Source: a virus. Taken from it: a DNA stretch of 33,428 nt. Numbering within the stretch: the first letter of the stretch is position 1; each line of letters opens with the position of its first letter. Location of the stretch: positions 1 to 33,428 of the IMG/VR virus record IMGVR_UViG_3300050010_000496; one strand, given 5' to 3'. A model generated the notes under the pieces. It was not told where the DNA came from and searched no databases. It worked only from the letters and a program-made list of their open reading frames with translations. Position numbers and translations under genes: made by a program. This document shows, piece after piece, positions 2-33,428 of the stretch.

Positions 2-709
2 GAACTCTCAGTCTATCCCTACATGAGTGCCTACTCTACCACTCTCTCCAGCGAGAAACTGTGGCATTCTAGAGGCACAACACTGTCCTCCTACTCGGAT
101 AAGATGATTCAACTTCCCAATGGAGGAGTCATAAAGATCCTGGCTCCTCCCGATCATGCCAACATCTGGGCAACCCTTTGCACCTATCGGGAGGAGAACA
201 AGGTCAAGATAGAAAGTAATCTCAATGCTTTGATGATCGCTCAAGCCTTTGTAGGTAGTAAGGCTACTTCTCGTCTTTCAGAGGATCTCAGAAAGACAGC
301 AAAGAATCTTCAACCTGACTTACAGGAACCCTGGCAGAAGATTGTGAAGCCGGTGCGTGAGTATAAAGAGGATGGCTGGGCTCATGGCGGTGGTGATTCC
401 ATTGAAGAACTCATGCGAGAGATGCATGGCATCGACAGCTTTGACAAACATGAACAACTCATGGCGGCCTTCGAGAAGCAACAACGTGAAGCGGCGGAGA
501 AGGAGAAGGATCGCATTGAGGATCTGGTGCGCAAGTACCACAAGGACGAGCCGGTTTGGGAAGACTCAATGCCAGTCATCTTGTCTGATGCTGAGGTTCG
601 GCACCAGGAGCAGGAACTCAAGAAGAATCGCAAGGTCATCAACCCAATTGTGCCTTATGAATCTCAAACTCCTCAGGAGAGGATTCGTAGGTTTGATCAG
701 AATCGTTAA
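2..709 (+). CDS. Unidentified protein upstream of the tail chaperone, 5' end cut by the window
   Basis: The frame is open from the first complete codon of the window to a TAA stop. The first ATG (position 23) has no Shine-Dalgarno sequence before it, so the true start probably lies upstream and this is a partial gene with 235 visible residues. I do not recognise a domain. The product looks soluble, mixed alpha/beta at first, then strongly helical and charged (Lys/Glu/Arg-rich from about residue 150), with no signal peptide or membrane segment. In contractile phages the slots just before the tape measure often hold tail-completion or assembly-chaperone genes, so such a role is possible but inferred only from position. 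Its last codons lie in a 38-bp sequence repeated 1.4 kb downstream, and its stop overlaps the stop of a convergent gene by 4 bp. Confidence 0.75.
   Translation, partial: ELSVYPYMSAYSTTLSSEKLWHSRGTTLSSYSDKMIQLPNGGVIKILAPPDHANIWATLCTYREENKVKIESNLNALMIAQAFVGSKATSRLSEDLRKTAKNLQPDLQEPWQKIVKPVREYKEDGWAHGGGDSIEELMREMHGIDSFDKHEQLMAAFEKQQREAAEKEKDRIEDLVRKYHKDEPVWEDSMPVILSDAEVRHQEQELKKNRKVINPIVPYESQTPQERIRRFDQNR
671..708 (+). repeat. 38-bp direct repeat, copy 1 (3' end of the first gene)
   Basis: Matches positions 2074-2111 at 36 of 38 bases. In this copy it encodes the last residues of the upstream gene (PQERIRRFDQNR) followed by TAA. The two differences between copies (cgt/cgc and ttt/ttc) are both synonymous in this frame. 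The two copies bracket the reverse-strand 440-aa gene. Confidence 0.85.
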
Positions 710-2028
710 CGAATTCGTCTCAATAGTTTAGATTTAATCCTCATACTATGCAAAAACTTGTTGTCTTCACTCTGTTCTTTTTCCTTCTTTTTCGCCTCTT
801 CTGCCAACTCTTTTTCCAACTTTTCCCTTGGCTCCACCATACGTGGATCTTCACCTGGTTGTTGTCCCTTTAGTTTTTCCTTGTCAATTTCAGCCTGTTC
901 CTTTATCTTCTTGGCAGACATTGTCTCAAAAATATGCAAGGCTTGTATAAACTCTTCTCTCGGTATATCTATCAGTAGGTTCTTATCTACTCCTGATCGG
1001 AATCTGAGAGTCTTCCCTTCATCATCGTGACTTCTTTTTACAATCCAACCATAGTCAGCCCAATGTCCACTAGAAGTGGTATCCTTGTTACTCATAGATT
1101 CCACTGATTTTGCCTGAGTACCATAGGCTGGAGTTAACTCCGCTATAAGTTGAGCAGACTTATATGGAAATGTGGCAATATTTTCTTCGCTACCTGTGTT
1201 ATAGATTAAAATTACAGCGCCAGTATCTGGATCATTAGATATTTGTCCTTCACCTGTACTTGGTTTTGCCCAATTATCCCTATTCCAATCCTCCTTATTG
1301 ATACGACGTCCTTCACTAAGTTCATTTTTCCGCATTATTTCCTGATAGGATTCCACTAATTGCCTGTATTTTGGATATAAATCCATTAAGGATTCTTGGA
1401 ACTCGTTATCCCAGTTTCTCCAGGTTATGTTAAGTGTACGAGGTTGCGGTGGTGATGATGTATACCCCCATTCACGCCAACCTTCGTCTTTCCAAAACTT
1501 CTTTGTGTAGTAAGTAGCTGCATGATAGATGGCAGCCATAGGATCTAGAATTTTATGTACAACATCTTCTGTCTCTACTTTTTGAATGTCATGTTCATGA
1601 CAATACTCTCTCCCCTTCTTATTGAGATACTGAGATTTCGGAGAATAATGAAGATGAGTCTTTAATCCAAAGTATCCACTCAGATTTCCGGACGTAACTC
1701 TTGACCAAATAGCCAAAAATCCACTAGCTTCCAGCTGTTGAACAACTTGAGGACTAATCGAAGCACAATTATGCAATTTCTCCTCTCCAATTAGAAATTC
1801 ATGAGATTGTCCATCTTGACTAAGGTTTTTCATCAAAAATAGTCTATCTCTATCAACATCATCTTGAGTAAGTTCTCTATTTTCTCTCATCCCATCTAAA
1901 GGAATTCCAGGATTAACCTGTATCTTGGGAAAACTATAGATATGAACTCCAAGATTACCTTGGTTATTGGGAATGTGTAGCAAGAGAGAAAGAGCAGTTT
2001 CAAAGTTTGGATTAGAGTGAAATATCAT
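706..2028 (-). CDS. 440-aa protein of unknown function, reverse-strand accessory gene
   Basis: Transcribed against almost everything else in the window. The start at 2028 is supported by a strong GGAGGAGG just before the ATG. I do not recognise the family. The middle is rich in aromatic residues (many Trp and Tyr between about residues 165 and 330). The last roughly 75 residues are a highly charged Lys/Glu helix, likely a coiled coil, ending in a basic tail (KSKLLRRIR). No signal peptide, membrane segment or nuclease motif is evident. The gene is AT-rich (23 of 60 bases G or C at 1141-1200, against 32 of 60 in the sheath at 22021-22080). It lies between two copies of a 38-bp direct repeat, and its stop overlaps the convergent gene's stop by 4 bp. 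This fits a recently acquired accessory (moron-like) gene, but its role is unknown. Confidence 0.75.
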   Translation of the reverse strand: MIFHSNPNFETALSLLLHIPNNQGNLGVHIYSFPKIQVNPGIPLDGMRENRELTQDDVDRDRLFLMKNLSQDGQSHEFLIGEEKLHNCASISPQVVQQLEASGFLAIWSRVTSGNLSGYFGLKTHLHYSPKSQYLNKKGREYCHEHDIQKVETEDVVHKILDPMAAIYHAATYYTKKFWKDEGWREWGYTSSPPQPRTLNITWRNWDNEFQESLMDLYPKYRQLVESYQEIMRKNELSEGRRINKEDWNRDNWAKPSTGEGQISNDPDTGAVILIYNTGSEENIATFPYKSAQLIAELTPAYGTQAKSVESMSNKDTTSSGHWADYGWIVKRSHDDEGKTLRFRSGVDKNLLIDIPREEFIQALHIFETMSAKKIKEQAEIDKEKLKGQQPGEDPRMVEPREKLEKELAEEAKKKEKEQSEDNKFLHSMRIKSKLLRRIR

Positions 2029-2041
2029 ACCTCCTCCTACT

Positions 2042-2057
2042 AGACTCCTAGAAGTCT
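2042..2057 (-). promoter_or_regulatory. Small hairpin in the leader of the reverse-strand 440-aa gene
   Basis: Read on the minus strand, AGACTT and GAGTCT can form a 6-bp stem (one G-T pair) around a CTAG loop. It sits just upstream of the strong ribosome binding site of the reverse gene. It could be a leader RNA hairpin or an operator-like near-palindrome; no clear -35/-10 pair could be assigned near it. Confidence 0.3.
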
Positions 2058-2073
2058 GTTTGTGTGAAATATC

Positions 2074-2111
2074 CCTCAGGAGAGGATTCGCAGGTTCGAT
2101 CAGAATCGTTA
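2074..2111 (+). repeat. 38-bp direct repeat, copy 2
   Basis: Second copy of the 3' end of the first gene. In the same frame it would encode the identical peptide and then a TAG stop at 2110-2112, but in-frame TGA codon 2065-2067 just upstream shows that the rest of that gene is absent here. Its end overlaps the stop of the next reverse-strand gene at 2109, reproducing the 4-bp convergent stop overlap seen at copy 1. Confidence 0.85.
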
Positions 2112-3044
2112 GTAGTCCTGTGTGACTAGCTCCTTGGATGAAACCTTCTTCAAGTGAACGGTTGCCTCAATGGCCTTCTGAGTCTCTTCCCAGTACTTGT
2201 CCACTGAATGAGGGTCAAGTCCGTTGGCCTCGGCGTACTTTTCCCAGAACTCCTTGGTCCTCGTTGCCTTGAAGGCATCGATAGCTTCCTGCTGACCGGA
2301 AGTGTACTTTGGCTCCCTGTCTAAGATATCGCTCCAGCGATCGATGTTAAGAAGGAAATTGGATGAATCCTTGCCACAGCGTCCAGCTAGGCAGTAGCCT
2401 GTAATGACTGGCCATTTCACCTGTTCCACGCCAAAACCTTCTTCACCCAGTTGATTCTGTCTATCAGGACCTTCAAGATGCCACATCACATCAAAGTGAG
2501 GAATCGTAGTATCTGAAGCTGGAACAGAATACTTTCCATCCATGCTATCTGTATCATTGGGGCAATTGCTGATGAAGTCGTCACCGATGACTACTTGTTT
2601 GTCGAACTTCAACTGAGTGACGACATACTTCAAGGTGTAGATGTTCAACGAACCTTCGATGTAACGCTGGTACAACCAGCCGGTTTTGCGCACGTACCAG
2701 TCATCCCAGTAATCGTTCTGCATAACTTGAGACAAGAACTTGTCACCTTGTCCACAGAAGGAAATAGCCTGATGAGGACGGATAATCTTTGGGTCGTAAT
2801 CAGGTCCCACAACATTTCCTAAAGGAACACCGTTACCAAACTGAGAATCTTTAGCAGCTTGATAGACATAGCTCATATGTTCAGAATTACTGTGTTCAGG
2901 AGTAGCCAGCCACACCAAACCAGCAAGACTGAAGATCACTACTCCCATCGCTAGCAAACCGAGAACCTTCAGTAAGAAGAAAGCTGCTTTCAATGGAGCT
3001 AGTAAGAACGACGCCGCTTCTGCAAGCCAACCAAACTCTCCCAT
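2109..3044 (-). CDS. Membrane-anchored protein with a cysteine-containing outer domain, unknown function
   Basis: The start is placed at 3044, where GAGGAG lies 6 bases upstream of ATG; a GTG at 3071 would add nine residues without a good site. The 311-aa product has a hydrophobic N-terminus, with amphipathic or hydrophobic residues 7-25 and a clear transmembrane segment at about 27-47. A soluble domain of some 260 residues follows, with four cysteines (in SFCGQG, SNCPND, GYCLAG and GRCGKD), as expected of a disulfide-bearing exported domain. It is not recognisable as a known family. The position, alone with another reverse-strand gene inside a tail operon, fits an accessory gene acting at the host envelope, for example superinfection exclusion, but that is inference. 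It is transcribed away from the chaperone and tape-measure genes, so 3045-3150 must hold its start signals. Confidence 0.7.
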   Translation of the reverse strand: MGEFGWLAEAASFLLAPLKAAFFLLKVLGLLAMGVVIFSLAGLVWLATPEHSNSEHMSYVYQAAKDSQFGNGVPLGNVVGPDYDPKIIRPHQAISFCGQGDKFLSQVMQNDYWDDWYVRKTGWLYQRYIEGSLNIYTLKYVVTQLKFDKQVVIGDDFISNCPNDTDSMDGKYSVPASDTTIPHFDVMWHLEGPDRQNQLGEEGFGVEQVKWPVITGYCLAGRCGKDSSNFLLNIDRWSDILDREPKYTSGQQEAIDAFKATRTKEFWEKYAEANGLDPHSVDKYWEETQKAIEATVHLKKVSSKELVTQDY

Positions 3045-3079
3045 GATGTACTCCTCAAGATTATCTACCACATCTGGAA

Positions 3080-3114
3080 CTCAGATCGGTTAGTATCCAA
3101 TCGTTAATGAATTC
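3080..3114 (+). repeat. Degenerate copies of the 38-bp repeat end, between divergent genes
   Basis: Bases 3099-3114 match 702-717 (the stop region of the first gene and beyond) at 15 of 16 positions. Bases around 3080-3098 resemble 2099-2118 with a few gaps. The segment lies in the short divergent region between the membrane protein gene and the chaperone gene. It may be the distal remnant of the original gene junction before the reverse-strand genes came in. Confidence 0.4.
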
Positions 3115-3150
3115 CGATTTATCAACTCTGACATGATTAGTGAGGGATGT

Positions 3151-3780
3151 ATGAAAAAGGAAATGATGGAGGAAGGAATTGCTGAAGCAGTTCCGTCAAT
3201 TGACGAGATAGTTGCTGCACTTGCCGGCTTTGGATTGGAGGATTTTGAAGAGATCCTCACTGTCAAGGTCGGTCCCAAGGAACTTCGTCTCAGAATTGCC
3301 AATCTTCCGACTGAAGAGGAGATGAACTCACTCTTTGCGGTGGAAGAATTCAAGGGATATGCCTGGGTTCAACACATCAAGTGTGAGATTCTATCCCGAG
3401 CAATCTCTTGGATCAATGGCATCAACATTCGCAATCTGACTTCCACACAGCGAATGGTTGTGGATCCCACAGACAAGGAAGGAGTTCAGAAAGACATCCA
3501 GGTTGTTCTCCGCAATCTCCTAATGGGTTGGGGCCAAGAATTTGTGGGAGTATTGTGGAAAGTGCTCATGGTTCATGCTCAACGCATCACGGACAAGTTG
3601 TATGAGCAATTCCCCGACAGCGCCATCATGACGGAATACGAGAAGAGATTCATGGAACACGCACAGGAAGAAATCGAGCAGGCGACTACCGACAATATCC
3701 GGCAGCAGATTTCTGAAATGTACGATCCTGAGATAGACGTGCCTAAGGAATCTGAACCTACGAAGACAAAGGAAAAGTAG
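3151..3780 (+). CDS. Probable tail assembly chaperone
   Basis: The ATG at 3151 is chosen because GAGG lies 5 bases upstream; an ATG at 3133 would add six residues but has no such site. The 209-aa product is acidic, soluble and mostly helical. A short beta-rich part (LTVKVGPKELRLRIANLP) is followed by long helices and a Glu/Gln/Lys-rich tail. The call rests mainly on position: the gene ends only 3 bases before the tape-measure start, where tailed phages encode the chaperone that coats the tape measure during tail assembly. I found no convincing slippery heptamer for the translational frameshift seen in some phages, so this looks like a single-product gene. It is the first gene of the block after the two reverse-strand insertions and presumably needs a promoter within or upstream of 3045-3150. 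Confidence 0.55.
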   Translation: MKKEMMEEGIAEAVPSIDEIVAALAGFGLEDFEEILTVKVGPKELRLRIANLPTEEEMNSLFAVEEFKGYAWVQHIKCEILSRAISWINGINIRNLTSTQRMVVDPTDKEGVQKDIQVVLRNLLMGWGQEFVGVLWKVLMVHAQRITDKLYEQFPDSAIMTEYEKRFMEHAQEEIEQATTDNIRQQISEMYDPEIDVPKESEPTKTKEK

Positions 3781-27492: not shown

Positions 27493-28419
27493 ATGAACGT
27501 CTTCACCGTTTATAAAACCGTCAATCTGATCAATCATCGCTATTATCAAGGAGTCCACGAAACTTCTAATCCCAACGACAGCTATCTAGGTTCCGGAATC
27601 GTCCTCACAAGAGCCGTAGCCAAGTATGGTGCCAGCAACTTCTCCAAAGAAATCTTATTCGTATACAACACAGCAGAAGAAGCCTTCTCCAAAGAGGTCG
27701 AACTTTGCGCTATTTCCAAAAATGATCCTCTTTGCTACAATCTACATCCCGGTGGCAAAGGAGGTTTCAAGTTCATACTAGATCATCACCTGATGACTCC
27801 AGTACCCAAAGAATTCCTCACAGGTCGCAAGCCCGGTTCCAAGGATTTAATTACCCCCGTCACTGTATTTCCAGAACCAGTCTGTAAGTACGGATGCGGA
27901 CTAGGAGCCAGGTTTCTTCTTGGAGAAAAAGGCACTCCTTGCTGCTCTGATCATTTTGCTAAGTGTACCGGATATCGAGCAACAAAGAAGTCTACCAAAG
28001 TGAAGCACATCTACAAAAAGGAGATGACGTGTTTTTATGGATGTGAACAGCCAGCCCATTATCTTCTTGGAGTCAGTGAGAAGCCTTGCTGTTCCAGGTC
28101 ATTCTATGATTGTCCTGGTCATTGGGTAAACCGCAAAACACTAGCTGACCCTGATTTGAGACAGAAGATGGAAACTACCATGATGGAAAGATACGGTGTG
28201 ACAAATCCAGCAAAGAACATAAAACTGGTTGCTAAGATGGTACAGACCAACATCAAACTCTACGGAGGAGCCAGCCCCACCTGTGATCCCACCGTTAATC
28301 AAAAGCGCATCCGCACCAACAAGAGACGCTTTGGTGGCAACGCTCCGTCCTGCTCTAAGGAGATCATGGACAAGATGAATGCTACTCGGAGAAAATCCAA
28401 ACTTCTCCCCTCTTCTTAG
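27493..28419 (+). CDS. GIY-YIG homing endonuclease with two cysteine fingers
   Basis: GAGG lies 5 bases upstream of the ATG. Residues about 4-95 form a GIY-YIG nuclease domain of the phage Seg-like type: VYKTVNLINHRYYQGVHE contains the variant GIY and YIG elements, then YLGSGIVLTRAVAKYGASNF, the likely metal-binding Glu in FSKEVELC, and CYNLHPGGKGGF. Two tandem cysteine fingers follow with identical spacing: C131, C135, C150, C151, C158 and C180, C184, C199, C200, C207. The C-terminal 80 residues contain repeats of the RYGVTNPAKN and RFGGNAPSC type known from phage homing endonucleases and probably bind DNA. Such enzymes cut phage genomes lacking the gene and spread it by repair. It is a free-standing gene placed just after a terminator, and its stop overlaps the next gene's ribosome binding site. 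Confidence 0.85.
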   Translation: MNVFTVYKTVNLINHRYYQGVHETSNPNDSYLGSGIVLTRAVAKYGASNFSKEILFVYNTAEEAFSKEVELCAISKNDPLCYNLHPGGKGGFKFILDHHLMTPVPKEFLTGRKPGSKDLITPVTVFPEPVCKYGCGLGARFLLGEKGTPCCSDHFAKCTGYRATKKSTKVKHIYKKEMTCFYGCEQPAHYLLGVSEKPCCSRSFYDCPGHWVNRKTLADPDLRQKMETTMMERYGVTNPAKNIKLVAKMVQTNIKLYGGASPTCDPTVNQKRIRTNKRRFGGNAPSCSKEIMDKMNATRRKSKLLPSS

Positions 28420-28426
28420 AGGCAAT

Positions 28427-30745
28427 ATGATGTATAGTCGTCTTCTCCAGCCTAATAAGGCTGCAGTCTTCTACGCTTCCCCTGAAGGAGAAACTTATGA
28501 TCCATTCTACGGACCTATTCCCAGAGGGGTGGGCGGTGCAGATCTTGATGGTCTTGATGGTATCCCCGACTCTCCGATCAACAACAAAACTCCGGAATAT
28601 GCTGAGGAGTCTCGCGGGTACAAGAACCCTCTAGCTGAGAAGGGAACTGAGAACAAGGATGAGGATGCCAACTTGGCGGAAGGAATTCCTCCCGGTTTGA
28701 TTGTGGCAAAAGTAGCTTATAGAGAGAAGGGGAAGAAAGAAGAGGAAGTAACACCCAAGGAGGAAGTTGTATATTCCTTGGGTTGGTGGGATTCAAGTGA
28801 TGATATTGTAATACCCACTGGGGTTAGTGGGACATTGAATCAAGCTACTCAATGGTCCTCTCAGACCGACCACCAACTCAAAGGATACTCCATACTGGCC
28901 TTTCCAAATGAAGGAGGAGAGGTCCTTAAATTTAGAGGATACCCCCTTTCAAGTTTTCATGGTACAGGACAAAATATCTCTGTAAAAACGGGAATTTCTT
29001 TTGAAATGACTGGAAACCGCTTGGGCAAATCGGTTTCATTTGCATTTGCTGATATGATTTTGAAGACAAAGACATCATCAGCTTCTTCAGCTTCTCAAGG
29101 AAAGATGGCTTACACGTATCTTTATCATGCTACTCCAAGAAAAAACTTGGAAAGTATTTTGAAAGAGGGTTTACTTCCACAAAAAGGTGATTCATCTTCA
29201 CGAATGAAGAATACCAAGGGAGTGTACTTCTTCACAGAGTTTGCCCCCACTAAACTCTTGGCTAATGCAGAGGAGAACCGTAAGGACAACGTGATCCTAG
29301 TGATAGATCGTAAGCAAGTACATGGTCTTAAATCAGATTCCGGATTTGCAGAACGAATCTCTGATGATTGGGAAGCAACCTACTGGAAGAATTACAAAGG
29401 CACTAAAGATAAGTCAAATGCGATTCCTCCAAAGAAACATACACTGTTTACCAAGGCTCAGCAATCCTTTTACACTACGAATCCAGTACCAAATAGTGCG
29501 ATTATTCGCGTTCTTAATCTGGATGGTAGTGTTTACAAGGATGTATCTACTATATCCCCTTCTGGTGAAAAGATCACAGATACTCATCCTGAACAACCCA
29601 GGGTATCTCCAAAGCATCATGATTTAAGTCAAGTGTATGGCCAACCGGACATTCGTTGCTTGGGAATGAGGGAGCCAGTACAGGTTTCCATTATCAGTGG
29701 CTGGAAGAGTATAGAACTGAAAACCTATCCTGAAGGTGGTAGTGGCAATTTTAAGATTCACCTAAGATTTGTTTTCATTCCAAGTGTTAGCGATGTTACG
29801 GCTGAATATGGTGATGAAATCCATAACTTCTCTGGAAATGTATACCTAGTCACTAAGGATGGAACTTTCTTTATAGTAGACAAGAAACGTCCTCCTAAGT
29901 TTTTATCTATCGAAGATAATGGAATATATAGTCCTGAAAGACCCATTTCAGAGATTTGGGGATCATTGGTTTTTCCAACTTTTCTGAAGAGTAAGTTGTT
30001 CGATCTTCCTTCTCTATATTCACACAGCTCGATGGAAAAGCAGTATGTAAGGTATGTGAAGGATTCGGAGGGTAATCCTAAGAAGGATTCAAATGGTTTG
30101 CCAATAACAGAACCTGATGTTTTTAAGCAATTAGAGCCAGGTAGTGAATCACTAAAACTTTGGCGCCCTCAGGCACATTACAAGGAAGCAGTTGGGACTG
30201 TCTCTGACTGGCCTCAGCCTTCGGAAGAACAGTTAGAACAATTAGAACAATACTACAAAAAGGTAAAGAAAGCACCTTCAACTACTGACAGTCTCCTGCC
30301 AGAAACTATTAAGATTATCAGATTTCTTGAGTCTCTAGGATGTAAGAGAAATACTTTGGCGGGTGATGATCCGGATACACCCCAAGGCGACTATTCGACT
30401 AACAACGAAGCGTATGCAAATTTTGGGTTTAAGGATCCCGATGAATGGCCAGGTGAATATGGTTATTTTGTCGTTAGTGATAAGAAGTCAAAAAAGGGAG
30501 GATCTTACTGGAGCTATATGGGTATACCCACAAAAGTAGGCTATGACCTAGCCTCTTTGGAAGAATTTGTAAAGAGGATGAGTACAAAGAAGAAGGCATC
30601 AGTGGATATCCATGAGTCTCCGACGAAGCTCCCACCGCGCAATGATCTACGCAGACACCTCGACAAAGACGCTCTGGAAGAAGATGAAGAGCCTGAGATG
30701 AGGCATCTGATCTCATGTTTAGTAGTTGCTGAGAAGGAAATCTGA
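28427..30745 (+). CDS. 772-aa protein with an ADP-ribosyltransferase-like segment
   Basis: AGAGG overlaps the previous stop; ATG 28427 and ATG 28430 are both possible starts, 4 and 7 bases from it. The N-terminal 225 residues are a Pro/Glu-rich, partly beta region of no known family. Residues about 228-355 look like an ART/KptA-type fold: YLYHATP (H234), NLESILKEGLLPQ, then GVYFFTE (Y267), and later strands VILVID and SAIIRVLNLDG. This His/Tyr pattern resembles the NAD-binding H-Y-[E/Q] signature of these families. It is a match seen by eye, with no third catalytic residue confirmed. The remaining 400 residues are mixed beta/helical and unrecognised, with a Lys-rich patch near 720 and an acidic C-terminal stretch. 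It sits just before the head protease and scaffold genes, flanked by two homing endonucleases. It could be a packaged effector or a structural protein. Confidence 0.6.
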   Translation: MMYSRLLQPNKAAVFYASPEGETYDPFYGPIPRGVGGADLDGLDGIPDSPINNKTPEYAEESRGYKNPLAEKGTENKDEDANLAEGIPPGLIVAKVAYREKGKKEEEVTPKEEVVYSLGWWDSSDDIVIPTGVSGTLNQATQWSSQTDHQLKGYSILAFPNEGGEVLKFRGYPLSSFHGTGQNISVKTGISFEMTGNRLGKSVSFAFADMILKTKTSSASSASQGKMAYTYLYHATPRKNLESILKEGLLPQKGDSSSRMKNTKGVYFFTEFAPTKLLANAEENRKDNVILVIDRKQVHGLKSDSGFAERISDDWEATYWKNYKGTKDKSNAIPPKKHTLFTKAQQSFYTTNPVPNSAIIRVLNLDGSVYKDVSTISPSGEKITDTHPEQPRVSPKHHDLSQVYGQPDIRCLGMREPVQVSIISGWKSIELKTYPEGGSGNFKIHLRFVFIPSVSDVTAEYGDEIHNFSGNVYLVTKDGTFFIVDKKRPPKFLSIEDNGIYSPERPISEIWGSLVFPTFLKSKLFDLPSLYSHSSMEKQYVRYVKDSEGNPKKDSNGLPITEPDVFKQLEPGSESLKLWRPQAHYKEAVGTVSDWPQPSEEQLEQLEQYYKKVKKAPSTTDSLLPETIKIIRFLESLGCKRNTLAGDDPDTPQGDYSTNNEAYANFGFKDPDEWPGEYGYFVVSDKKSKKGGSYWSYMGIPTKVGYDLASLEEFVKRMSTKKKASVDIHESPTKLPPRNDLRRHLDKDALEEDEEPEMRHLISCLVVAEKEI

Positions 30746-30771
30746 CTAAGAGACTCTCTATAGGAAGTACA

Positions 30772-31761
30772 ATGACGAAACTGCCTTTTGGACACAAAAT
30801 CTCGCAGGTTAATCCAGCATGGGATGAAGTGTGCCTTGAGATGATTCTGGAGAAGTATCCGGACTGCGACCAGAAAGCAGTGGAAAACTATCTGAAATTT
30901 GTAGCGGATGGAAAACAAGTAAATGGAAAATTAGAAGGTCATCATACCTTGATGAGAGCTGATTTTCCTCAGTATATAGACACACCTGTTAACATCGTTA
31001 AGCTGACAGCACGCAATCACTTTGTAGCTCACTACTTGTTAGCAAAGGCGGTTCCATCATCTTCCAGTATTCAAATCACTTTTTATCTCATGGCCAACAT
31101 GAAAAGGGCTATGTATCTAAAATTGCAAGAAGTTTATAAGATGGCAGATGTATACGAAGCCTCTAAACTTCACATACCTTCGACAAAGGGGTTCACTCCA
31201 GTTTATAACCCAGATACTAAAATGGTTGTACTCATGTCTAAAACAGATCCTGTAGTGGTTTCAGGACAGTTTAGACATCACACAACAGGAACTACTTCAG
31301 TGAGAGACAAGCAGAGGAACTGTTTTCGTGTTCCCAAAGACGACTCTAGGATAATTTCCGGAGAATTACAACCAATCAACAAAGGAAGAAAAGTTCGTAT
31401 GAATACAGTAACGGGAGAAACTGCTTCTATGATTGCTGGAGATGTCAGGCTAGAAGATCCCAACTGGGTTCATCCCTCTACAGGAAAAGTAGCTGTAGTT
31501 GATTCAGAAGGAAATACTTTTTCTGTCTCAAAAAATGATTCTCGTTTTCTTTCAGGTGAATTACGTGGTGTAATGTCAGCTGCCTCTGAGGATACTAGAA
31601 AAAGAATCGGAAATGCTCAGTTAGGTAGACATCCTTCTCTGGAATTGAGAAAATTGTGGAGTAAGCGACGTAAAGGACGGGTTGTTTCACAGAAGACAAG
31701 AGACAAAATCAGTGCCTCTCATTTTCTTATGCATCAGAAAAGGAGAGAAAATGTCATTTAA
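30772..31761 (+). CDS. HNH homing endonuclease with repeated DNA-binding modules
   Basis: AGGAAG lies 5 bases before the ATG. The nuclease core is at about residues 45-95: EGHHTLMR (H57, H58), N74, then ARNHFVAHYLLAKA (N82, H83, H87), the usual HNH pattern of phage endonucleases. Four short modules follow, starting near V144, V177, V208 and V242, each ending with a (V/I/F/L)xSGxx-type strand; they probably contact the DNA target. Residues about 271-318 resemble a NUMOD3-type motif (SEDTRKRIGNAQLGRH, SQKTRDKISAS). It would cut and spread into endonuclease-free phages. Its end overlaps the start of the next gene by 11 bases and includes that gene's ribosome binding site. It is AT-rich compared with the structural genes. 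Confidence 0.8.
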   Translation: MTKLPFGHKISQVNPAWDEVCLEMILEKYPDCDQKAVENYLKFVADGKQVNGKLEGHHTLMRADFPQYIDTPVNIVKLTARNHFVAHYLLAKAVPSSSSIQITFYLMANMKRAMYLKLQEVYKMADVYEASKLHIPSTKGFTPVYNPDTKMVVLMSKTDPVVVSGQFRHHTTGTTSVRDKQRNCFRVPKDDSRIISGELQPINKGRKVRMNTVTGETASMIAGDVRLEDPNWVHPSTGKVAVVDSEGNTFSVSKNDSRFLSGELRGVMSAASEDTRKRIGNAQLGRHPSLELRKLWSKRRKGRVVSQKTRDKISASHFLMHQKRRENVI

Positions 31762-32626
31762 GAAGCAGGCTCAGGCAGTACTAGCCAGCCCACTTGTCAG
31801 TCTTAATGATTGGCATAAGATGTATGGAAATAACGCTTTTGGAGTTAAGACTGCCTCATTGAAGAAAGTTGCGGAGTCATCTCAGTACCTTCTATCTCAT
31901 TGCACAATTATGGCATCAGTAATGGTAGAGGCAGAACCTTATGACTACCTAATTAAGCCTGAGACGAGCCATTTGGCTAATAATAATCAGGACGCCTGGA
32001 GTAATGAAGTACTCAAAATGAGTCACAAATCTTTCATTGGTGCATTCAATTTTCTTGAACACTTCCAAAATTCTAAGTATGCCAAGGGACATATTCTAGA
32101 CGCTGTCCTTCGTAAAGTATCGATTGCTTCTCCGGATATTTGGGTCTACTTTTGTGATATTTTGGTAGCAACAGATATGAAACATGAATCACTTGTAGGA
32201 GATATCCGTTCGGGTAAAACTAAGTATATGTCGATGGGTTGCGTCGCAGATGAAGTTACATGCTCCTTTTGTGGAACTAGAGTCACTGATGCCAACACCT
32301 ATTGTCAGCATCTCAATTTTCAGAAAGGCATGTTCATGCCTGATGACGACGGTGTTCCTCGGATCATAGTGGAATTGTGCGGACGGCCTTCGCTTCCAGG
32401 TGGTGGAGTTCATTTTATCGAGGCTTCATGGGTTGAGACCCCTGCCTTTCCTGGAGCGGAACTTCGTGGGATTATATCTGACGAGAACGGGAACGATACC
32501 TGGACAGGACCTAAGACTAAGTTTACATATAGTACCACCGCTGGAATTAAGAAAGCTGCCTCTAGTCCAAGAGAAGAGTTGTCCAGAGCTTCCATTGCCG
32601 ATTTTAGACGGAGGTTTGGTTCATGA
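31751..32626 (+). CDS. Probable prohead protease
   Basis: AGGAG lies 5 bases before the ATG at 31751; earlier in-frame starts lie deep inside the HNH gene. The 291-aa product has an N-terminal helical region, then a core with HCTIMASVMVEAEPYDYL and DAVLRKVSIASPDIWVYF. The candidate catalytic His is H145 (MKHESLVGDI) and the candidate Ser is S161 (YMSMGC). Directly after the Ser is a small zinc site: C171-x2-C174, C185-x-H187. The block SMGC, CSxCG, YCxHL is, as far as I recall, typical of head maturation proteases of some large myoviruses. Such enzymes sit inside the prohead and cleave scaffold and capsid proteins. A scaffold-like gene follows immediately, supporting the call. The last four bases overlap a small ORF (ATGA). 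Confidence 0.65.
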   Translation: MSFKKQAQAVLASPLVSLNDWHKMYGNNAFGVKTASLKKVAESSQYLLSHCTIMASVMVEAEPYDYLIKPETSHLANNNQDAWSNEVLKMSHKSFIGAFNFLEHFQNSKYAKGHILDAVLRKVSIASPDIWVYFCDILVATDMKHESLVGDIRSGKTKYMSMGCVADEVTCSFCGTRVTDANTYCQHLNFQKGMFMPDDDGVPRIIVELCGRPSLPGGGVHFIEASWVETPAFPGAELRGIISDENGNDTWTGPKTKFTYSTTAGIKKAASSPREELSRASIADFRRRFGS

Positions 32627-32718
32627 AGATTACCTGTTGGTATAAGAAACGACTTCAAAACACCCTAGTAGTGAGTGGTTCACTGGAGACTGCGCAATGC
32701 GTAAACTTTCTCAACTGA
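32623..32718 (+). CDS. Possible 31-aa small protein, ATGA-coupled to the protease gene
   Basis: ATG overlaps the protease TGA stop, with a strong GGAGG 8 bases upstream inside the protease gene. The product begins MKITCWYKKRLQNTL and is basic and short. Its last 22 bases overlap the start of the scaffold-like gene in another frame. It may be a real small protein, or the reading may only serve to couple ribosomes to the next start. It has no recognisable domain. Confidence 0.35.
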   Translation: MKITCWYKKRLQNTLVVSGSLETAQCVNFLN

Positions 32719-33428
32719 AACAGGCTCTCTTGAAGAAGGAAGCTGATCTTGACATGCTTGACGACCAGATCATGTCTCTGCCGACTTCTTCAGTCAAGTT
32801 TGACTCCCTTGCCCAGAAGCGTGAGGACATGGAAACCGATATCCGTCAGCTTCGAGAGGGCATCGAGGTTCTCAATGCTTGGGACACTCTCAAGGGCGGC
32901 GATTGGTCAGATGAGATGAAACAGTCTCTCGGCGAAATCGATCCGTTGGTCGTGGAAATGGCGACCGGCGAGGCTGATGAAGGAATGGGCATGGATGATT
33001 TGGGTATGGGTGCTCCTCCCATGACCGACTTCGCACCTGAAGCTCCTCTGCCTCCTCCTGCACCAGCTGTTGAACCTCCTCCCCTGGAAGAGCCTGTAGC
33101 ACCTCCGCCTGTTGAAGAAAACACCATGGATGAAATTCCTTCCGGTGATGAACTTGCCGGCGAAGAGCCACCGGCGGAAGAGCCACCTGTCGAGGAAGAA
33201 CCTCCTGCTGAAGAGGCACCGATTACGGCATCAAGCAAGAAATCCAACTTCCCGACTCCAAGTAAGAAAAGCACTCCGGTGCCTACCGCTCAGAAGAAAG
33301 GCAACACAACCATGGCGACTGCGACCGAAACCACGAAGTCTTCTTCTCTTAAGGATAGAATCGCTGTTATCAAATCAAAGAGAGCAGAAGCGATCAATAA
33401 GGAAGCACAGACTAGAGTCGCTTCCGCT
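32697..33428 (+). CDS. Acidic, proline-rich prohead core/scaffold-like protein, 3' end beyond the window
   Basis: GGAG lies 8 bases before the ATG, and the frame stays open for all 244 codons to the window end, so the gene is partial. The first 80 residues are a charged coiled-coil helix (KLSQLKQALLKKEADLDMLD, then KREDMETDIRQLREGIEVL). Next come a Met/Gly/Asp-rich part and a long Pro/Glu low-complexity run (EEPPAEEPPVEEEPPAEEAP), then a basic Ser/Lys/Thr-rich part. This composition, and the place directly after the probable prohead protease, fit the internal scaffold or core protein that is degraded during head maturation. Alternatively it may be a fusion of scaffold with a capsid-related domain further on; the sequence ends before that can be seen. 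Confidence 0.6.
   Translation, partial: MRKLSQLKQALLKKEADLDMLDDQIMSLPTSSVKFDSLAQKREDMETDIRQLREGIEVLNAWDTLKGGDWSDEMKQSLGEIDPLVVEMATGEADEGMGMDDLGMGAPPMTDFAPEAPLPPPAPAVEPPPLEEPVAPPPVEENTMDEIPSGDELAGEEPPAEEPPVEEEPPAEEAPITASSKKSNFPTPSKKSTPVPTAQKKGNTTMATATETTKSSSLKDRIAVIKSKRAEAINKEAQTRVASA

What the first reader, a model, noticed from the sequence alone, without database searches (positions are those of the whole stretch)
671..2111. Reverse-strand gene bracketed by a 38-bp direct repeat whose differences are synonymous
The 3' end of the first gene occurs twice (671-708 and 2074-2111, 36 of 38 identical), with the 440-aa reverse gene between. Both substitutions keep the encoded peptide, and both copies reproduce the same 4-bp stop-to-stop overlap with a convergent gene. 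A replicative duplication would not by itself give synonymous-only differences. This looks like an insertion that carried its own recoded version of the target gene's end, so that it restored the host gene while leaving the old end behind. Recoding would also protect against recutting if a nuclease was involved. The unknown gene may therefore be part of a mobile unit of a kind I do not recognise.
Basis: partly seen in the sequence, partly recalled or inferred. Interest (0 to 1): 0.7.

Follow-up and report, generated by a model that had tools for sequence, protein, structure and literature searches.

The report
Nested insertions in phage cargo slot

Summary
In detail: 671-708 recurs at 2074-2111 (36/38; E = 2e-10). 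Relatives settle the insertion question. Three IMG/VR genomes have gene A (ends at 709) next to D (tail assembly chaperone, 3151-3780), with one repeat copy and no B (the 440-aa gene).

Best reading: B (717-2073) inserted with a 46-bp target duplication. C (2112-3098) then entered the second copy, leaving 8-bp AATCGTTA repeats.

The "recoded end" inference is weak. Both differences polarise to copy 1, the working gene end, and copy 1 diverges no more than the rest of A. The 4-bp stop-to-stop overlap recurs at this slot in relatives. B has no detectable homologue, nuclease, transposase or terminal inverted repeats, and its last codons come from the target, so it is not shown to be a mobile unit.

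The A-D slot is a recurrent cargo site, holding reverse-strand membrane genes and, in several lineages, homing endonuclease genes. In relatives, three homing-endonuclease insertions do come with diverged or synonymously recoded ends of the adjacent gene.

The parts
2..709 (+). Gene A, 3' part (356 aa in relatives); homologue of Tunturi_5 gp259 (hypothetical protein), upstream of the tail assembly chaperone gene
   Evidence: 94% aa to G001, 41% to gp259
671..716 (+). Copy 1 of the duplicated target: A's working 3' end plus 7 bp of intergenic target (CGAATTC)
   Evidence: abuts B-specific DNA at 716/717
717..2073 (-). B cassette, 1357 bp, 38.4% GC (window 46.5%)
   Evidence: absent from all relatives
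706..2028 (-). Gene B, 440 aa orphan ORF; its last residues and stop (..R-I-R-stop) are read from the target sequence
2074..2111 (+). Copy 2 of the target duplication: relict A end; matches relatives at both sites where the copies differ
2112..3098 (-). C cassette, flanked by 8-bp direct repeats AATCGTTA (2104-2111 and 3099-3106)
2109..3071 (-). Gene C, 320 aa with an N-terminal hydrophobic segment; homologue (72% aa, 74-78% DNA) lies elsewhere in G001-G004
3099..3150 (+). Target resumes: AATCGTTAATGAATTCCGATTTATCAACTC..., continuous with copy 2 before C entered
   Evidence: 94% to the relatives' A-D junction
3151..3780 (+). Gene D, tail assembly chaperone homologue (Tunturi_5 gp258, 45% aa); codons about 16-38 unusually diverged from relatives (29% against 12%)

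Best explanation
The region is a recurrent cargo slot between a tail gene (A) and the tail assembly chaperone gene (D) of Tunturi_5-like jumbo phages, holding two nested insertions. Shown: in close relatives A and D adjoin with one copy of the repeat, and the window has B and C between them. Inferred order: B (1357 bp) entered first at the end of A, and a 46-bp stretch of target (CCTCAGG...GAATTC) was copied on both sides, as happens when a break with widely offset nicks, or with both processed ends re-copied, is repaired. C, a gene kept elsewhere in the sister genomes, then entered the second copy and left 8-bp AATCGTTA repeats. The left copy stayed the working end of A and gained two silent changes; the right copy is a relict. 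Inferred more weakly: the breaks came from homing endonucleases that target this junction, since endonuclease genes occupy the same slot in relatives and D's start shows diverged patches next to them.
For: Empty site with one copy in G001-G003. B absent from those and 12 further relatives. C homologue about 21-23 kb away in G001-G003. Copy 1 continues into CGAATTC while the rest of the target resumes at 3099 after C, which is what a 46-bp duplication later split by C predicts. The outgroup codons CGC and TTC match copy 2, so both changes lie in copy 1. Slot survey: of 16 more distant groups, about 10 hold a reverse-strand membrane gene before D, one of these with a GIY-YIG ORF and one with an HNH-like ORF; G001/G003 hold a GIY-YIG gene. 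D codons 18-40 differ by 29% from G002, against 12% elsewhere.
Against: Only one genome carries B, so order and duplication length are reconstructed, not observed. The last 8 bp of the second copy would be present on any model that keeps D's flank. The direction of C's move is ambiguous: deletion between the AATCGTTA repeats would also give the relatives' state. GTATCC at 3093-3098 has no assigned origin. No endonuclease gene is now in the window's slot, and none of those in relatives has been tested.
Confidence: 0.6

Rival explanations
1. Ordinary recombination between co-infecting phages: a donor already had B directly after its own A end, and crossover at the A end on one side with an illegitimate join on the other put A(donor)-B in front of A(end)-C(recipient). 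The two silent differences are allelic divergence between donor and recipient.
For: Copy 1 continues into the C-less target version CGAATTC, as a donor without C would. Window and G001 have exchanged DNA recently elsewhere (99.6% over 30595-33428 against 85-89% nearby). Both copies share ATT and AGG, so the donor would be a close relative.
Against: No such donor found. Needs an extra unseen genome, while the 46-bp duplication needs none.
Confidence: 0.22
2. One reading: B is, or was part of, a mobile unit that carries a recoded version of the target gene's 3' end, restores the host gene, avoids recutting and leaves the old end behind.
For: Polarity: the old end matches relatives, the working end does not. 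Close precedent in fungal mtDNA (PMC3630166). Homing-endonuclease inserts in sister phages do carry replaced or recoded gene ends.
Against: Only two changes, no excess over A's background. B has no nuclease profile and no homologue at any second place. B's 3' end is read from the target, so the unit has no end of its own. In the sister phages the old gene end was replaced, not left behind.
Confidence: 0.1
3. Metagenome assembly chimera.
For: Single contig from a metagenome; reads not available; B has lower GC.
Against: The longest exact stretch within the repeat is only 17 bp, too short for an assembler to join on; ORFs are intact across joins; C sits in a slot that holds reverse-strand genes in many relatives.
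Confidence: 0.04
4. C is the slot's old resident and the sister phages lost it by deletion between the 8-bp repeats; only B is an insertion.
For: About 10 of 16 more distant groups have a reverse-strand membrane gene in the slot; two of them share the same 4-bp stop overlap.
Against: C is not detectably homologous to those proteins, and the sister genomes keep C elsewhere. Copy 1's CGAATTC then needs a C-less donor.
Confidence: 0.15

Closest known systems
Mobile ORFs (mORFs) of fungal mitochondria, e.g. Allomyces macrogynus and Glomus atp6 (PMC3630166)
   Same: A foreign ORF follows a gene whose 3' end is duplicated; the old end persists downstream and resembles relatives more than the working end does
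   Different: mORFs encode LAGLIDADG or GIY-YIG endonucleases and lie on the host gene's strand; B encodes no recognisable nuclease and is on the opposite strand; divergence here is 2/38 rather than clearly foreign
Free-standing phage homing endonuclease genes and HEG-driven exchange (T4 seg/mob genes; ICP1, PMC10448857)
   Same: The same intergenic slot is occupied by a GIY-YIG gene in G001/G003; adjacent gene ends are diverged in HEG-bearing genomes
   Different: Neither B nor C is an endonuclease gene; the HEG inserts show no left-behind duplicate
SegB-mediated segmental amplification in phage T6 (PMC13096335)
   Same: A homing endonuclease provokes duplications in phage DNA via short homologies
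   Different: Produces tandem repeats of a resident segment, not insertion of a new gene
Phage cargo or moron loci between late structural genes
   Same: Reverse-strand accessory genes in a tail-gene operon at a fixed position across many relatives
   Different: Here two insertions are nested, and one left a 46-bp target duplication

Membership tests
Homing endonuclease gene / mORF | Encodes a homing-endonuclease domain | tested here: not met
   No Pfam, PHROG, NCBIfam, PADLOC or PDB match for B beyond a weak hit to one unknown PHROG, while two other window genes match such families
Homing endonuclease gene / mORF | Empty allele lacks the insert and is otherwise intact | tested here: met
   G002 A-D junction
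Homing endonuclease gene / mORF | Carries a clearly foreign or recoded end of the target gene | tested here: inconclusive
   2/38 silent differences polarised to copy 1, no excess over gene background
Homing endonuclease gene / mORF | Endonuclease cuts the empty site | not testable with these tools
   Needs biochemistry
DNA transposon / insertion sequence | Transposase gene | tested here: not met
   No transposase match for B or C
DNA transposon / insertion sequence | Terminal inverted repeats | tested here: not met
   No inverted pair at both cassette ends
DNA transposon / insertion sequence | Short target duplication of fixed length | tested here: not met
   46 bp for B (longer than usual) and 8 bp for C; lengths differ
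Group I or II intron | Conserved catalytic RNA | tested here: not met
   No Rfam match in the window; the insert lies after A's stop codon
Recurrent phage cargo slot | Same position holds unrelated accessory genes in related genomes | tested here: met
   Survey of A-D junctions in 17 groups plus Tunturi_5

The most novel reading that the evidence does not exclude
The A-D junction is a homing-endonuclease battleground. Breaks made there by a rival phage's endonuclease were repaired by capturing a resident gene (C) and a foreign gene (B) together with a non-identical copy of the target gene's end, a phage counterpart of fungal mORF-driven replacement of gene ends, with cargo that is not itself a nuclease.
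Probability: 0.2. Interest if true: 0.6.

Novelty: new member of a known kind. Interest (0 to 1): 0.35.

Why it matters
It gives a readable scar of how a jumbo phage acquires accessory genes inside its tail operon without disrupting it. It also ties the position to sites used by homing endonucleases in sister phages. The stronger lead lies next door: in these phages, homing-endonuclease insertions come with localised, sometimes purely silent, replacement of the neighbouring gene's end (12 silent and 0 replacement changes in 20 codons in one case). That makes 'recoding against recutting' directly testable with an endonuclease and two natural alleles.

Tried and rejected
B homologues by pattern plus tblastn in IMG/VR and GTDB genomes, and by tblastn in phage records and 16 related contigs: none. 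B fold: mean pLDDT 36, unusable; C fold: 38.6; so no fold search was run. C as a homologue of the slot's membrane proteins: no support. Copy 2 as a regulatory element for B: promoter and terminator counts are near shuffled levels and RNA folding has z = 0.4. Duplicated A ends in other genomes by nucleotide match: none in the gaps, although L036, L053/54 and L055/56 hold a small plus-strand ORF like A's C-terminal domain (blastp about 1e-5 for L036 and L055; by eye in L053). Introns: no Rfam hit. Transposon ends: none.

Full report
What is there. The window is a 33-kb IMG/VR virus contig. Its genes match the tail region of Tunturiibacter phage Tunturi_5, a 309-kb jumbo phage of an acidobacterial host (PMC11924767). 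Gene A (2-709, +) corresponds to Tunturi_5 gp259 (hypothetical protein) and gene D (3151-3780, +) to gp258, annotated tail assembly chaperone; they lie about 9 bp apart in Tunturi_5. In the window, two reverse-strand genes lie between them: B (706-2028) and C (2109-3071).

Empty sites. G001, G002 and G003 (L002-L004) carry A and D with a single copy of the repeat...CCTCAGGAGAGGATCCGCCGGTTCGATCAGAATCGTTAACGAATTCCGATTTATCAACTC..., and a degenerate search for the encoded peptide finds one copy in each. B is absent from these, from G004 and from 12 more distant relatives.

A second insertion was missed. C's homologue is in G001-G004 but not in this slot: in G001-G003 it lies about 21-23 kb from A (the G004 contig did not show A). 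C's homologous stretch is 2109-3092. After 3098 the A-D target resumes with AATCGTTAATGAATTCCGATTTATC, so the slot's right edge is at 3099, not 2111. C is flanked by AATCGTTA on both sides (2104-2111, 3099-3106). Its left join with the target shares TTA, which serves as C's antisense stop and lies in A's stop region.

Reconstruction. Copy 1 does not stop at 708: it continues with CGAATTC of the empty-site sequence and meets B-specific DNA at 717. If C is taken out, copy 2 reads CCTCAGG...AATCGTTA+ATGAATTC, so B would be bracketed by 46-bp copies of one target stretch with three differences. The simplest history is B first, with a 46-bp target duplication, then C into the second copy with an 8-bp duplication. 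Caveat: the D-side bases would be there on any model. The alternative is that A-end+B came from a donor phage lacking C. B's final codons (CGA ATT CGT TAA) are read from the target, so B was cut off or fused at insertion; that is not how a unit with its own ends would look.

The silent differences. Relatives have CGC and TTC at the two variable codons, like copy 2; copy 1 has CGT and TTT. Both changes therefore fell in the copy that still encodes A's end, where selection filters replacement changes; chance alone gives two silent changes with probability 0.04-0.11. Copy 1 differs from relatives at 4/38 positions, A as a whole at about 8%, with no excess in its last codons. Both window copies share ATT and AGG against ATC and CGG in relatives, so they split after the lineages did. 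This fits drift or a closely related donor; it does not require recoding. The shared 4-bp stop overlap is also ordinary here: L038 and L063 show the same 4-bp overlap between A and an unrelated reverse gene, and L058, L064 and L057 come within 1-10 bp.

The slot. Profile searches with D and A gave 16 further groups at 90% nucleotide clustering. Between A and D they hold: nothing (L041, L044, L046, L051, L062; also Tunturi_5); a reverse-strand membrane-protein gene (L037, L038, L053, L055, L057, L058, L061, L063, L064; in L040 before D, with A not upstream; L061 read by eye); a GIY-YIG ORF in L064 (below Pfam's cut-off); an HNH-like ORF in L040 (by motif CxxC..DHINGDG..CANCH, no Pfam match); and in L036, L053 and L055 a small plus-strand ORF like A's C-terminal domain. 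Among the closest relatives, G001/G003 hold a 221-aa GIY-YIG/NUMOD3 gene. The junction is thus a recurrent insertion site. C is not detectably homologous to the slot's membrane proteins.

Homing endonucleases and gene ends in the sister phages. Three comparisons between HEG-bearing and HEG-free alleles were read. (i) A-D: in G001 the first 40 codons of D differ from G002 at 43 of 105 bases, the rest at 5 of 528. (ii) Downstream of C's usual place, G004 has an Endonuclease_7/NUMOD3 gene and the next gene (HAD-like) carries 12 silent and no replacement changes in its first 20 codons, against 16 silent and 1 replacement in the next 285. (iii) The helicase gene before a GIY-YIG gene in G002 has 24 silent and 3 replacement-codon nucleotide differences in its first 480 codons but 49 and 63 in the last 99. 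In cases (i) and (ii), unlike B, the old end was replaced and not left behind. The window's D shows 29% divergence at codons 18-40 against 12% elsewhere and resembles G001 there in part, which hints at past endonuclease-linked exchange at this junction; this is an inference.

Mechanism and confidence. Insertion of B and C in this slot: shown by comparison, barring assembly error. 46-bp duplication with B, then C: about 0.6. Endonuclease-provoked breaks as the cause: about 0.35. B's function: unknown; no homologue by any search, fold model unusable. The working guess is accessory cargo expressed against the tail operon.

Against known kinds. The layout resembles mORFs of fungal mitochondria, where a duplicated C-terminus accompanies an endonuclease ORF and the native end matches relatives better (PMC3630166). 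B fails the defining feature, an endonuclease. Phage homing endonucleases can provoke duplications (SegB, PMC13096335) and mark boundaries of exchange (PMC10448857). Overall: a new instance of phage cargo-slot insertion with an unusually long target duplication, of moderate interest.

Noticed in passing
L005:7062-7577 and the next gene (G004); same gene in L024:16502-17428 (G002): An Endonuclease_7/NUMOD3-type homing gene in G004 is followed by an HAD-like gene whose first 20 codons carry 12 silent and 0 replacement changes against G002 and G001, then near identity: a clean natural 'recoded end'.
   Followed up: partly
G002 (L024) helicase gene 28163-29902 beside a reverse GIY-YIG gene 29840-30610: The last 99 codons of the helicase gene are sharply diverged between G002 (endonuclease gene present) and G001 (absent), while the first 480 codons are nearly identical.
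   Followed up: partly
window 30595-33428 against G001 115634-118467: 99.6% identity over 2.8 kb that includes an HNH-type homing gene (30772-31761), while neighbouring regions are 85-89%: a recent exchange between the two phages.
   Followed up: partly
window 28379-30745: 788-aa ORF with a weak PARP-like match (Pfam E = 0.005, below cut-off); about 1.9 kb of it (28708-30595) is absent from G001.
   Followed up: no
L036:4166-4402, L053 about 5597, L055:5609-5809: Small plus-strand ORFs after A that resemble A's own C-terminal domain, apparently old partial duplications of A in the same slot.
   Followed up: partly
window 2-120: The first 39 visible codons of A have 1 difference from G002 while the rest of A averages about 8%: possible recombination edge near the contig end.
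   Followed up: no
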